A stretch of 64,000 nucleotides of DNA from a virus, in the IMG/VR virus record IMGVR_UViG_3300031857_000156, positions 1 to 64,000 of that record; one strand, 5' to 3'. The notes beneath the pieces are model-generated. The model ran no database searches. It was not told the origin of the DNA and saw nothing but the letters and a program-made list of their open reading frames with translations. The number at the start of each line of letters is the position of its first letter. The stretch's first letter is position 1. A program made the translations under genes and the position numbers. Positions 31,180 through 49,535 of the stretch are shown piece after piece.

Positions 31180-32619
31180 CTACTGGGCGTACGGGTTGTA
31201 CCGCTGCTTGCTTTTGTCATCCGCGTAGTCGTAGTCGCGCACCGGCAGGGGGTCCAGCTGTATCCAGCCCGAGTCGCGCAGCACACGCAAGGCCTGGGAT
31301 AAGCTGTCCACGTAGTCATCGTGCCCACCAGACTCCGGGAACGCACACACCTGGCGCAGGAAACGCTTTGCCCAGTCAGCAAACTCCCCATGCTTTTTCA
31401 CATCCTCCGGCACGTAGACCTTGCCCTTCGCTATAAGCGGAGCCACGATGTTGATACGCTGCACCTTGTCCGCTCGGCCAGGGTTGTACGCCCTGACCGG
31501 CACGCCGGCACCTTGCAGCTCCTGGATTAGCGAGATACCTGCCGACTTATCCTCCATGAGGATTAGGTCTGCCTTTCTGCCTTTTGCAAAGGTGTTGTCC
31601 GCGCCGTACACGACCTCCTTAAAGTCGTTGATTACCTTCTTGCGCAGCTCGGGATATGACAGGTGCGCATCCCACGCATCCAGAAGGATGATGCACGTCC
31701 CCTTGTCCTGGTTCTCAAACACGCCCCAAACCTCGCAAGCCGTCGGGTCGTTGTGTGTCTTCTCACTCGTTGCCGGGTCGTATGAGGCGATCACATACTC
31801 CAGTGTCGGCGTCTCCTTTTTCATCGGCCACATCTTAAACCACTTGCGCTTCACAATGCCGGCGTCTTCTGGGTTTAGGATTTCACCATAGATCTCCTGT
31901 TTACCCAGGTCAGTGCCTTCGTAGGTCTCAAGCTGCTTGAAAAACGTCGCCGATAGGTTCTGCCTGTTGTCATAAGACGAGGCATTTACCATGTACACGT
32001 CGCCGCCGACCTTACCCTCGGCCAGATCGACAATTAACTCCTTTGGCTTGGGTGTGGTGGTTATGATCTGCTGCACCCGGGCTATGCCTTGGTGCTTTAA
32101 GCGCAGCGTAAACTGCACCTGGTCGTACGCATCGTCGATGTACTCAAACGCACAGAGCTCATCGAACCAGGCGCCATGGAACTGCTTACCTCGATACCGC
32201 TCTGGCTCGGATCCTGGTATGCCCTGGATGATAGACCCGTTGATTAACGTGATTTCAAAGAGCGACTTGTTGTAATCCTTGATCAACGAGTGCGGAATGA
32301 TGTTAAGTAACCCCGAGTCGCCCTCAAAACACGTCGCCCGAATGTCGTTTGACGTCGGCGCGGTCACTAACCAGCGTGTGTCGGGGTGTTTCCACGCCCG
32401 AATCCCAATCCAATGGCTCGCGGTGTGCGTTTTACCTGATCCCCGGCCGGCAAGCATGAGGAAGGTGTCATATTCGCTGTCCTCCGGCTCTCTTTGGTGT
32501 CCAAGCGCGCTTAATTCCCATCGAACCTGCCACAAAGCCGCGTCCAGCTGCGGTTTTGGCCAGTGTTTGTTGTTTTTTGCAAAATCCGCCAGGATTTTTT
32601 CTTGTTTTTTGCTCAACAT
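31180..32619 (-). CDS. terL: Terminase large subunit (TerL)
   Basis: 479 residues. The ATPase has Walker A GRGSGKT at 58-64 and Walker B with the catalytic Glu in HGAWFDELCAF (E154), then a coupling motif in ITTTPKP. The nuclease has acidic residues in ASYDPAT, LMEDKSAG and HDDYVDSLSQAL. It packages DNA into the prohead and cuts concatemers. The start overlaps the Hint gene stop (ATGTTGA). The small subunit candidate lies far away at 50.4 kb. Confidence 0.92.
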   Translation of the reverse strand: MLSKKQEKILADFAKNNKHWPKPQLDAALWQVRWELSALGHQREPEDSEYDTFLMLAGRGSGKTHTASHWIGIRAWKHPDTRWLVTAPTSNDIRATCFEGDSGLLNIIPHSLIKDYNKSLFEITLINGSIIQGIPGSEPERYRGKQFHGAWFDELCAFEYIDDAYDQVQFTLRLKHQGIARVQQIITTTPKPKELIVDLAEGKVGGDVYMVNASSYDNRQNLSATFFKQLETYEGTDLGKQEIYGEILNPEDAGIVKRKWFKMWPMKKETPTLEYVIASYDPATSEKTHNDPTACEVWGVFENQDKGTCIILLDAWDAHLSYPELRKKVINDFKEVVYGADNTFAKGRKADLILMEDKSAGISLIQELQGAGVPVRAYNPGRADKVQRINIVAPLIAKGKVYVPEDVKKHGEFADWAKRFLRQVCAFPESGGHDDYVDSLSQALRVLRDSGWIQLDPLPVRDYDYADDKSKQRYNPYAQ

Positions 32620-33575
32620 ACTGAGATAAATCCCTCACTTGCCAAGAATGGTTTGTCAACAATGACATGAACGCACTGTTTCGGATCAATTTTCTTGATT
32701 TTTTGTATGTACCTGCGCTTTAGGCGCCCGTTTTTGTCTTCCAGCCTGAATGTCAGTCTATAATTCGGCCCAATCTCAGGCGTGTACAGCATGGTCTTAC
32801 ACCCCAGCGACTCAACCAGCGCCTGGTAGCGCCTAACTGTCGGGTAGTGGGGCTCGTAAATCGCGTATTTCTTCTCGTGGTTGTCCCACACCACATAAAA
32901 GCACGCGTCTATCAGACCCTCCAGCAGCTCCTCCCGTTGCTCGGGCGAGCTCTCCACGTAACTAAACGGCAGAGTCGTTGGGATGTCTGCGCCGGCAAAC
33001 AAAAACGTGTCCTTGATCGATGGCCGGAACTCAAACTTAAAGCGGCCCACGTTAAACTGTTTCACCTTCATAAAAAACCCGTGCCCGCGGCACCGCTTTC
33101 TCACCCGCTCCAGATCCATCTTGCCTACCATGTTCCTGCCTGACGGCCGCAACGACCCCAGCCAGATACCCATCACATAGGGCGGCACCGGCAGATCCTT
33201 CCACGTGTACTGCAGCGGCTCGCACACTTGTATGGACCAAGTCTCTGGTTCTTTTTTAACCAGCTCGTCCATTGACAAGAGCTTGATCTTCGAGCGCAGT
33301 GGCTTAGAATACTTCTTGCCGCGGTTCTTAACCCACCGCGACAAGTTGTCTCTATACGTCTTATCTTGCAGCGGGAGCGCCATGTGAGAGTCGCCCTCTA
33401 GCCCCAGCCCATCATCAAACGACACCTGATAGCACGCGCTCGGTATGTACTGCTGCACCGATCTCACCGGCTGGGCGCAGCCCGCTTGGTCAAACACAAG
33501 ATCTCCAGGGCGCAAGTCGATTGCCCGCCGCCAGCCACTAAGCGTGGGTATTGGCGTTGTCGCTGCTAGTCCCAT
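32613..33575 (-). CDS. Free-standing intein-like Hint/LAGLIDADG protein
   Basis: 320 residues showing intein architecture without flanking exteins. Block A is at 2-30 (GLAATTPIPTLSGW to GDLVFD), block B at 58-66 with H64, LAGLIDADG-like motifs at about 134-146 (degenerate) and 217-226 (LLEGLIDACF), and block F at 301-316 (VHVIVDKPFLASEGF). The first catalytic Cys is replaced (MGLA) and the terminal His-Asn is missing (ISVC), so self-splicing should be dead. It overlaps terL by 7 bp. It may be a homing-endonuclease relic or a recruited regulator. Confidence 0.75.
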   Translation of the reverse strand: MGLAATTPIPTLSGWRRAIDLRPGDLVFDQAGCAQPVRSVQQYIPSACYQVSFDDGLGLEGDSHMALPLQDKTYRDNLSRWVKNRGKKYSKPLRSKIKLLSMDELVKKEPETWSIQVCEPLQYTWKDLPVPPYVMGIWLGSLRPSGRNMVGKMDLERVRKRCRGHGFFMKVKQFNVGRFKFEFRPSIKDTFLFAGADIPTTLPFSYVESSPEQREELLEGLIDACFYVVWDNHEKKYAIYEPHYPTVRRYQALVESLGCKTMLYTPEIGPNYRLTFRLEDKNGRLKRRYIQKIKKIDPKQCVHVIVDKPFLASEGFISVC

Positions 33576-40788: not shown

Positions 40789-40919
40789 AGATATTAGGTT
40801 TTTGCATGATGCTGTTTGGGTTCCTGCTAACCACGCAGGGGACATCGTGGAACGCGCTGATGTTGATGGCCGGCGGATGCGCACTAATTTATGGAGCATA
40901 CCGACTTGAAAAGAGATAG
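40785..40919 (+). CDS. Tiny two-helix membrane protein
   Basis: 44 residues with two hydrophobic segments (ILGFCMMLFGFLL and ALMLMAGGCALIYGAY) and a KR end. It overlaps the sigma factor start by 29 bp. Unknown. Confidence 0.5.
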   Translation: MKILGFCMMLFGFLLTTQGTSWNALMLMAGGCALIYGAYRLEKR

Positions 40920-41478
40920 GACAGCGCTGTCAGACTACATCCGGGTGCTGTACAGGCACCCGGTGCTGCCGGTGCAGGAAGAGGAAAGGCTGTCAGGCAT
41001 GATACAGGCCGGAGACAACGCAGCGCTGGATAAACTGGTGCGGCACAATCTCCGGTTTGTTATTTCCGTGGTCAAGGACATGCCGATTTGGCAGAATGGC
41101 TCGGTGCCTTTCGAGGACATTGTGGCCATCGGCAACGAGTCCCTGCTCAAGGCAGCCAGGAAGTGGGTGCCTCGTAATGGCGCGAGGTTTGCAACGTACG
41201 CTAAGCCATTCATTGTCAAGGGTATCAGGAGGACCCTTGATAATGAATGGTCAATGATCCGCGTGCCGGTAAACATCCTCGAAGAGATACGCCGCATGAA
41301 GTATCTCGAGCGGGTTTTATCGCAAGAGCTCAGACGCGAGCCAACGCAGGCCGAGCTTGCCAATCGAATGAAAGTGCACGAGAGCCGGATAGTCGAGCTG
41401 CAAAACTTACTGACTCTCGAGCCAGTATCGCTTGAGGCATACAATCAGGAGAAATTCCACGAGGAGAGCGAAGAATGA
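40891..41478 (+). CDS. Sigma-70-type RNA polymerase sigma factor lacking region 4
   Basis: 195 residues. Region 1.2 is at about 11-43 (YIRVLYRHPVLPVQEEERL), region 2.1 at 44-62 (LVRHNLRFVISVV), region 2.2 at 72-92 (PFEDIVAIGNESLLKAARKW), 2.3/2.4 at 96-119 (GARFATYAKPFIVKGIRRTL), and region 3 at 122-176 (RVPVNILEEIRRM, TQAELANRM). It ends in an acidic tail without region 4, so it could read only -10-type elements unless a partner supplies -35 contact. It probably redirects host RNA polymerase to phage promoters. Confidence 0.85.
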   Translation: MEHTDLKRDRTALSDYIRVLYRHPVLPVQEEERLSGMIQAGDNAALDKLVRHNLRFVISVVKDMPIWQNGSVPFEDIVAIGNESLLKAARKWVPRNGARFATYAKPFIVKGIRRTLDNEWSMIRVPVNILEEIRRMKYLERVLSQELRREPTQAELANRMKVHESRIVELQNLLTLEPVSLEAYNQEKFHEESEE

Positions 41479-48869: not shown

Positions 48870-49092
48870 GTTTGATTTAGAGCAGGCGCTTCTGGTTTTG
48901 TGGGGGTCTGCAGAAGACGTAATGTTGTTTTTCGAGCACTACTATGAGCATCACGAATCCATGTCCGCGGATGATGTGGCAAACACGCTGCTGGGGTTGC
49001 ATCAGCTAATCCACATGCGCGGACAAAAAGCCTTTAACATTTTTGAAAGTCTTGTACATGAAAATCCCAAAAAATCTGTTGACACCATTTAA
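48829..49092 (+). CDS. Small hypothetical protein
   Basis: 87 residues, helical (DLEQALLVLWGSAEDVMLFFEHYYEHHESMSADDVANTLLGLHQL). It has overlaps on both sides. It resembles the preceding gene in its C-terminal FxxL pattern, possibly an old duplication. Unknown. Confidence 0.55.
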   Translation: MKSQKKSPFAKPNRFDLEQALLVLWGSAEDVMLFFEHYYEHHESMSADDVANTLLGLHQLIHMRGQKAFNIFESLVHENPKKSVDTI

Positions 49093-49234
49093 AAACCCTT
49101 TTGTTGAAGCCAAGCGCCAGGAGCTGGCCATAGCAATGACAAAGAAAATGATTAACGAGGCCATAAAGGACGGCAAAGGTCTGGCCAAACAACGTGATGA
49201 AATGCAGGGCAAAAAGCCTAAAGATTCTGCATAA
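49058..49234 (+). CDS. Small basic protein
   Basis: 58 residues from the ATG at 49058 (a start at 49043 is less likely). Lys-rich helix (AKRQELAIAMTKKMINEAIKDGKGLAKQRDEM). The promoter motif at 49229 overlaps its stop. Unknown. Confidence 0.5.
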   Translation: MKIPKNLLTPFKNPFVEAKRQELAIAMTKKMINEAIKDGKGLAKQRDEMQGKKPKDSA

Positions 49235-49243
49235 GTAGTAGTA
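49229..49243 (+). promoter_or_regulatory. Candidate phage promoter motif
   Basis: TGCATAAGTAGTAGTAAG, the exact core of the recurrent motif on the plus strand. It would drive the tmRNA-like RNA and the following genes. The transcript start region also forms a GTAGTAG/CTACTAC hairpin (49235/49262). Confidence 0.6.
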
Positions 49244-49327
49244 AGCACGTCGGGAGACGCCCTACTACCCCGGACGCCTCTAATGGGTTGCGACTACGCG
49301 GCCGGGCGCACCACCGGGGACCCCTAT

Positions 49328-49408
49328 GGGGTTGGAATAGTTTCGACGTGGGCCAAGGCCTAAGCGGCAACCTTGCGGACCTGGGTGCGATTCCCAGCAA
49401 CTCCACCA
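49328..49408 (+). ncRNA. Minimal tmRNA-like RNA (tRNA-like domain only)
   Basis: The 5' end GGGGTTG pairs with CAACTCC before ACCA, including the G3-U pair that marks alanine tRNA and tmRNA. The tmRNA signature TTTCGACG is at 49341-49348. The 3' part GGAC-CTGGG-TGCGATT-CCCAG-CAACTCC-ACCA has the same segment lengths as E. coli tmRNA. CAAGG/CCTTG (49354/49371) forms a P2-like stem. Only about 45 nt lies between the halves, so the tag-coding domain and pseudoknots are absent. It could be a decoy, a tRNA-Ala-like RNA or a degenerate gene. The rest of the 301-bp gap 49235-49535 has no other clear gene. Confidence 0.65.
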
Positions 49409-49535
49409 AAACATTGCCGGGGAAACCGGGGAAACCGGTGACATTTTTGATCATTGTAAATTTGAAATCTTATTTTTTAGTAATGAAAAAATACCCCGGT
49501 TTTACCGGTTTGCCCGGCGCGTGAAAGGAAACACT

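What the first reader, a model, noticed from the sequence alone, without database searches (positions are those of the whole stretch)
49328..49408. An 81-nt tmRNA-like RNA without an mRNA-like domain
It has both ends of tmRNA: acceptor stem with a G3-U pair, UUUCGACG, GGAC plus a T-arm with segment lengths equal to E. coli tmRNA, and CCA. Only about 45 nt remain for everything else, so no tag sequence or pseudoknots fit. A stripped tRNA-like domain could be charged with alanine and engage SmpB or the ribosome as a decoy, or alter trans-translation during infection. I do not know a described phage example of this form.
Basis: partly seen in the sequence, partly recalled or inferred. Interest (0 to 1): 0.8.

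Follow-up and report, generated by a model that had tools for sequence, protein, structure and literature searches.

The report
Mini-tmRNA widespread in phages
The phage carries an 81-nucleotide stripped-down copy of tmRNA, the RNA bacteria use to rescue stalled ribosomes; the same kind of RNA turns up in at least 140 viral genomes and is so strictly kept that it probably interferes with, or bypasses, the host's ribosome-rescue system.

Summary
Window 49328-49408 (+) is a complete tmRNA tRNA-like domain (TLD) with CCA. A 28-nt hairpin insert replaces the tag ORF and pseudoknots. Rfam tmRNA matches it end to end (53.3 bits, E 3.8e-18); ARAGORN misses it. The kind is not new: mycobacteriophage DS6A has a "TLD only" tmRNA, and the literature reports that such a molecule inhibits tmRNA in E. 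coli. New, as far as I could find, is the breadth and the constraint. A strict signature finds 137 IMG/VR contigs; together with cultured phages and one metagenome bin this is 143 records, 87 unique RNAs and 40 insert clusters, against only 2 of ~85,000 bacterial genomes (one of them a viral contig). Acceptor, T-stem and P2 helices covary. The alanine identity pair G3·U70 is present in 87 of 87, and a control scan with U70 excluded found none. In three relatives the RNA is 78-81/81 identical, while coding DNA is 70-85% and the immediate flanks are mostly unrelated. No SmpB gene was found in 43 phage records. Best explanation: an alanine-charged TLD that uses host SmpB and EF-Tu to compete with, or short-circuit, trans-translation. 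The RNA is well supported; the mechanism is inferred. New member of a known kind.

The parts
49328..49408 (+). mini-tmRNA: TLD-only tmRNA, 81 nt including encoded CCA
   Evidence: Rfam RF00023 1-374, 53.3 bits; 87 unique homologous RNAs; conservation stops at exactly these ends
49328..49334 (+). acceptor stem 5' strand GGGGUUG (G3 of the G3·U70 pair = 49330)
   Evidence: 7/7 pairs; positions 4-7 covary across homologues
49335..49348 (+). D region and UUCGACG motif (no D stem)
   Evidence: matches the RF00023 consensus GGaUUCGACg
49347..49352 (+). P2 helix 5' strand (CGUGGG)
   Evidence: P2 pairs covary in 40 insert clusters; a relative changes G·U to G-C here
49353..49371 (+). P2 internal loop and apical hairpin GCC-UAAGC-GGC; takes the place of the tag ORF and pseudoknots
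   Evidence: family pattern of purine-rich loop, CC..GG hairpin, AAC; the hairpin in the window itself is inferred by analogy
49372..49377 (+). P2 helix 3' strand (CUUGCG)
49377..49380 (+). GGAC motif before the T-arm
   Evidence: RF00023 alignment
49381..49397 (+). T-arm CUGGG-UGCGAUU-CCCAG
   Evidence: 5/5 pairs; T-stem pairs 1-2 covary
49398..49408 (+). acceptor 3' strand CAACUCC, A73, CCA
   Evidence: CCA encoded in 73 of 128 copies
49043..49234 (+). upstream small ORF (63 aa), a syntenic neighbour kept in relatives
   Evidence: blastn of L128, L076, L030
49521..49724 (+). downstream small ORF (67 aa, PHROG 16028, unknown function), a syntenic neighbour kept in relatives

Best explanation
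It is a functional mini-tmRNA: a tmRNA reduced to its tRNA-like domain plus a short capped P2 helix. It is probably transcribed with the surrounding rightward genes and trimmed like a tRNA (inferred). It is charged with alanine by host AlaRS (inferred from the invariant G3·U70). The charged RNA then binds host SmpB and EF-Tu and competes with host tmRNA for stalled ribosomes (inferred). Having no tag or resume codon, it cannot complete trans-translation, so it acts as a charged decoy or dead-end acceptor that lowers tagging and ribosome rescue during infection. Shown here: the RNA, its architecture, its helices, its strict conservation and its virus-restricted distribution. Inferred: expression, charging, SmpB binding and the effect.
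For: Full-length Rfam tmRNA match. 143 records, 87 unique RNAs and 40 clusters with covarying acceptor, T and P2 helices: for example acceptor pair 6 is standard in 40/40 (shuffle mean 18) and P2 pair 3 in 36/40 (shuffle mean 17). G3·U70 in 87/87, though position 3 was not fixed by the search, and 0 hits when U70 is excluded against 119 or more when it is required. Between phage lineages with 70-85% coding identity the RNA is 78-81/81 identical with mostly unrelated immediate flanks, and a compensatory U6-A72 to C6-G72 change occurs. Nearly absent from bacterial genomes: 2 of 84,980. No phage SmpB in 43 records, so host SmpB would be used. 24 of 75 RNAs have no stop codon in any frame of the insert, so no tag ORF is conserved. 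Published: the TLD-only DS6A form inhibits tmRNA in E. coli (PMC11915505, PMC4131195).
Against: No transcript, charging or binding data. The literature says inhibition occurs whether or not the RNA can be charged, so invariant G3·U70 is not explained by simple SmpB titration. Streptomyces phage Tomas carries a full tmRNA as well as a diverged mini-like RNA, which is odd if the aim is to block trans-translation. The nearest cultured relatives of the window phage that I tested lack any RF00023 match, so the RNA is dispensable in that wider group.
Confidence: 0.5

Rival explanations
1. Tagless ribosome rescue: Ala-TLD with host SmpB enters the A site of a stalled ribosome and takes over the nascent chain. 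The peptidyl-TLD is then released without tagging, freeing ribosomes for the phage and sparing phage proteins from degradation.
For: Invariant alanine identity pair and CCA. Tag-less tmRNAs persist in mitochondria together with SmpB and in two plastids (PMC11915505).
Against: No known step would release the ribosome without a resume codon and stop. Reported inhibition of endogenous tmRNA by TLD-only RNA points to interference instead.
Confidence: 0.22
2. Uncharged sponge: the RNA only titrates SmpB (or another TLD-binding factor); alanylation is irrelevant.
For: A TLD-only molecule is reported to inhibit tmRNA whether chargeable or not (PMC4131195).
Against: Absolute retention of G3·U70 while acceptor pairs 4-7 drift freely.
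Confidence: 0.13
3. A non-ribosomal role for a tRNA-like RNA (regulator, decoy for an RNA-targeting defence, alanine donor), with the TLD kept for stability or processing.
For: A conserved internal loop and hairpin in P2 across unrelated phages could be a ligand site; most copies stand alone, away from tRNAs.
Against: It would not by itself require UUCGACG/GGAC and G3·U70 together.
Confidence: 0.1
4. A non-functional relic of a deleted tmRNA, or an attachment-site fragment of host ssrA.
For: Phages do carry ssrA fragments as attachment sites (established); the Validus locus found here looks like one, beside an integrase.
Against: Both ends complete, compensatory changes, 97-100% identity inside 70-85% identical genomes, covariation over 40 clusters.
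Confidence: 0.03
5. A diverged tRNA-Ala rather than a tmRNA derivative.
For: Same G3·U70 identity; RF00023 also scores some tRNAs near threshold.
Against: No D stem or anticodon arm, UUCGACG and GGAC present, P2 closes directly onto the T-arm; tmRNA beats tRNA in Rfam clan competition; ARAGORN makes no tRNA call on any of 127 copies.
Confidence: 0.02

Closest known systems
TLD-only tmRNA of mycobacteriophage DS6A (tmRNA Website 11587; PMC4131195, PMC11915505)
   Same: Phage-borne, standard order, little more than the tRNA-like domain, no tag CDS
   Different: Direct sequence comparison was not possible (record not held). The window RNA lies in a different phage, whose closest cultured relatives infect Caulobacter.
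Standard bacterial tmRNA (Rfam RF00023)
   Same: Acceptor stem with G3·U70, UUCGAC, GGAC, T-arm, start of P2, CCA
   Different: Lacks the mRNA-like domain, tag ORF and all pseudoknots; 81 nt against about 350 nt
CDS-less plastid tmRNAs of Mallomonadaceae, about 65 bp (PMC11915505)
   Same: Same reduction to a TLD
   Different: Organellar, not viral
Phage-encoded full-length or permuted tmRNAs (Bxz1-like, Wildcat, HTVC008M, Melnitz)
   Same: Phage-borne tmRNA genes; the Wildcat tmRNA is its most highly expressed lytic gene (PMC7474061)
   Different: Those keep a tag-coding domain; the window RNA does not

Membership tests
TLD-only (no-CDS, standard order) tmRNA, DS6A type | complete tmRNA TLD: acceptor, UUCGAC, GGAC, T-arm | tested here: met
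TLD-only (no-CDS, standard order) tmRNA, DS6A type | no tag reading frame or pseudoknots | tested here: met
   28-nt insert; 24/75 family inserts have no stop codon in any frame
TLD-only (no-CDS, standard order) tmRNA, DS6A type | sequence homology to DS6A itself | not tested
   DS6A record not held
TLD-only (no-CDS, standard order) tmRNA, DS6A type | inhibits host tmRNA | not testable with these tools
   literature only
canonical tmRNA | alanine identity G3·U70 and A73 | tested here: met
   G3·U70 in 87/87; no hit with another base at position 70; A73 was fixed by the pattern
canonical tmRNA | tag ORF with resume codon and stop | tested here: not met
canonical tmRNA | binds SmpB | not testable with these tools
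   TLD motifs present; no binding data
permuted tmRNA | 3' piece precedes 5' piece in the gene | tested here: not met
   standard order; RF04321 only 22.4 bits
tRNA | D stem and anticodon arm | tested here: not met
attachment-site ssrA fragment | 3' fragment only | tested here: not met
   both ends complete; conserved unit is exactly the RNA

The most novel reading that the evidence does not exclude
Alanine-charged mini-tmRNAs are a widespread, overlooked phage tool against (or short-cut through) bacterial trans-translation. They were gained or kept in many unrelated phages and work on the ribosome as charged RNAs rather than as passive SmpB sponges. Annotation misses them because ARAGORN does not call them.
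Probability: 0.4. Interest if true: 0.85.

Novelty: new member of a known kind. Interest (0 to 1): 0.63.

Why it matters
One phage (DS6A) was named in the literature I could read as having this form, and only 9 of 97,179 curated tmRNAs are 'standard, no CDS'. A set of 143 records with invariant alanine identity suggests that phages commonly intervene in ribosome rescue with a minimal RNA. It supplies natural variants, and cultured phages (Streptomyces GiJojo, LuckySocke, pSt2308, Alone3 and BRock; Stenotrophomonas Jojan60; Pontimonas phiPsal1), in which to test this directly. It also shows what a TLD needs in order to act without the mRNA-like domain.

Tried and rejected
Permuted tmRNA: RF04321 only 22.4 bits, wrong order. 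tRNA: no ARAGORN call, no D or anticodon arm. A tiny tag ORF: the window has GCC UAA in the insert, but a third of family members have no stop in any frame. Phage SmpB partner: none in 43 records. Attachment site: rejected on conservation. A host-matching test on T-loop sequence was only partial: actinobacterial hosts are UUC in 24/24 parsed, but the sampled alphaproteobacteria mostly have another loop, so I draw no host conclusion from it beyond compatibility. Two early collection patterns were mis-spaced and found nothing (diagnosed, corrected). Six of the first 134 pattern matches failed the acceptor-stem check, and L145 was excluded by hand as a probable standard-tmRNA 3' end. DS6A could not be fetched. 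RNAalifold on an automatic alignment of the P2 region recovered only the apical stem because the alignment slipped; the anchored test was used instead.

Full report
What is there. Window 49328-49408 (+) reads GGGGUUG-GAAUAGU-UUCGACG-[28 nt]-GGAC-CUGGG·UGCGAUU·CCCAG-CAACUCC-ACCA. Rfam's standard tmRNA model matches it from first to last position at 53.3 bits, above its gathering score of 47, E 3.8e-18 over the window, with 312 model positions replaced by 19 nt. ARAGORN finds nothing in the window. The signature does not occur in 100 dinucleotide shuffles. Minimum-free-energy folding of the single sequence is not informative (z -0.31), and RF00023 sometimes scores probable tRNAs near its threshold. 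I therefore relied on comparison.

Homologues in cultured phages. BLASTN found 81-83-nt RNAs of the same form in Streptomyces phages GiJojo, LuckySocke and pSt2308 and in Stenotrophomonas phage Jojan60; all score above the Rfam gathering threshold over the full model. Further members are Streptomyces phages Alone3 (36.8 bits, below threshold) and BRock (64.5 bits) and Pontimonas phage phiPsal1 (54.6 bits, between prohead protease and major capsid protein). None is annotated as an RNA in its record; in GiJojo a hypothetical protein is called over it. Other BLAST hits were ordinary full-length or permuted tmRNAs (HTVC008M, Rb1, Bajun, GMA2, QDWS359).

Homologues in metagenomic viruses. After requiring at least 6 of 7 acceptor pairs, 137 IMG/VR contigs remain, and 143 records in all with the window, four cultured phages and one metagenome bin: 87 unique RNAs of 69-97 nt, 40 clusters whose inserts differ by more than 25%. 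The same signature in 84,980 bacterial and archaeal species genomes gave 8 matches. Inspection leaves two mini-tmRNAs: a Prochlorococcus single-cell contig of the same length and RNA position as IMG/VR contig L071, and a 50-kb contig in a Mycobacterium bin whose origin I could not settle. The class is strongly tied to viruses. ARAGORN overlaps only 2 of 127 copies, and only 16 of 127 have a tRNA within 1.5 kb (this set counts the window and one contig twice). Most copies therefore stand alone and are not passengers of a tRNA array.

Selection on structure. Across the 40 clusters, acceptor pairs 4-7 are standard in 39-40 of 40 with 3-4 pair types each. T-stem pairs 1-2 are standard in 40 of 40 with 4-5 types. 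P2 pairs 2-4 are standard in 35-36 of 40 with 6 types, against shuffle means of 17-19. The pair G3·U70 is invariant: position 3 was not fixed by the pattern yet is G in 87 of 87, and a scan requiring any base other than U at position 70 found nothing, where the matching U70 scan reached its limit at 119. I checked that the ambiguity code works in gapped patterns. The insert of the 80-83-nt members has a common plan: P2 helix, purine-rich internal loop, short CC..GG hairpin, AAC, P2. Shorter members (69-73 nt) have one P2 hairpin, often with a tetraloop.

Selection in the window's own lineage. Eleven contigs carry nearly the same RNA. L128 is about 85% identical to the window in coding DNA, and its RNA is 81/81 identical. 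L076 is about 70-78% identical, RNA 79/81; one change turns a P2 G·U into G-C. L030 is about 72-77% identical, RNA 78/81, including the compensatory change U6-A72 to C6-G72. The 100 nt on either side align no better than shuffled sequence against the window, except part of the upstream side in L030 (0.64), while the neighbouring genes stay in order. The conserved unit is exactly the 81-nt RNA.

The phage. G000 is a 64,078-bp IMG/VR record. Its major capsid protein is 65-66% identical to Caulobacter phages RW, RLK, KcrB and GB2A and to a spring-water phage. Six cultured or named relatives tested, including Caulobacter phage RW, have no RF00023 match. No SmpB gene is present in 43 phage records searched.

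How it most likely works. [quoted passage not shown] the mRNA-like domain then supplies tag and stop. The window RNA keeps what the first steps need and lacks what the later steps need. Earlier work reports that a TLD-only molecule inhibits tmRNA in E. coli, perhaps by titrating SmpB, whether or not it can be charged (PMC4131195; PMC11915505; the primary paper, Mao et al. 2009, was not available to me). My data add that natural copies never give up the alanine identity pair, which a pure sponge would not need. I infer a charged decoy or dead-end acceptor that competes with host tmRNA. Tagless rescue is the main rival. Expression, charging and binding are not shown.

Novelty. The kind is known: DS6A is listed as 'TLD only', and the 2025 tmRNA database holds 9 'standard, no CDS' entries among 97,179. 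The window is a new member. The breadth across phages, the capped P2 architecture and the invariance of G3·U70 are not described in the papers I could search. The library lacks most subscription journals, so this is not proof of novelty.

Noticed in passing
L012:1475-1555, L013 same place, L011:1500-1580: Streptomyces phages Tomas, Naboo and Riptide have a diverged relative in the slot after tRNA-Val: acceptor with G3·U70, T-arm and the GAAAGCC..GGAAC hairpin are kept, but UUCGAC and GGAC are eroded. Tomas also encodes a full-length tmRNA (record 97147-97421, 104 bits).
   Followed up: partly
window 49234-49262: The stretch gtagtagtaagcacgtcgggagacgcc upstream of the RNA is conserved in relative L030 and folds into hairpins; unknown element.
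   Followed up: no
window 49411-49520: An imperfect inverted repeat with 15-nt arms lies just downstream of the RNA, present only in the window's closest relatives (L056, L107).
   Followed up: partly
window 32613-33575 (-): ORF beside the large terminase that looks by eye like a Hint/intein-type domain; no Pfam match.
   Followed up: partly
L017:1342-1398: Gordonia phage GMA2 has a Pistol ribozyme match (56.8 bits) within its tRNA cluster, near a full tmRNA.
   Followed up: no
L007:519-937 (-): Brevundimonas phage Bajun has a GOLLD RNA match (104 bits, below its gathering score of 150) near its permuted tmRNA.
   Followed up: no
L033, L054, L079, L080, L099, L102, L108: A mini-tmRNA subtype with a 44-nt insert made of repeated UGUCACAGUGUCAC units.
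   Followed up: no
window 40891-41478: The phage encodes a sigma-70-like factor with regions 2 and 3.
   Followed up: no
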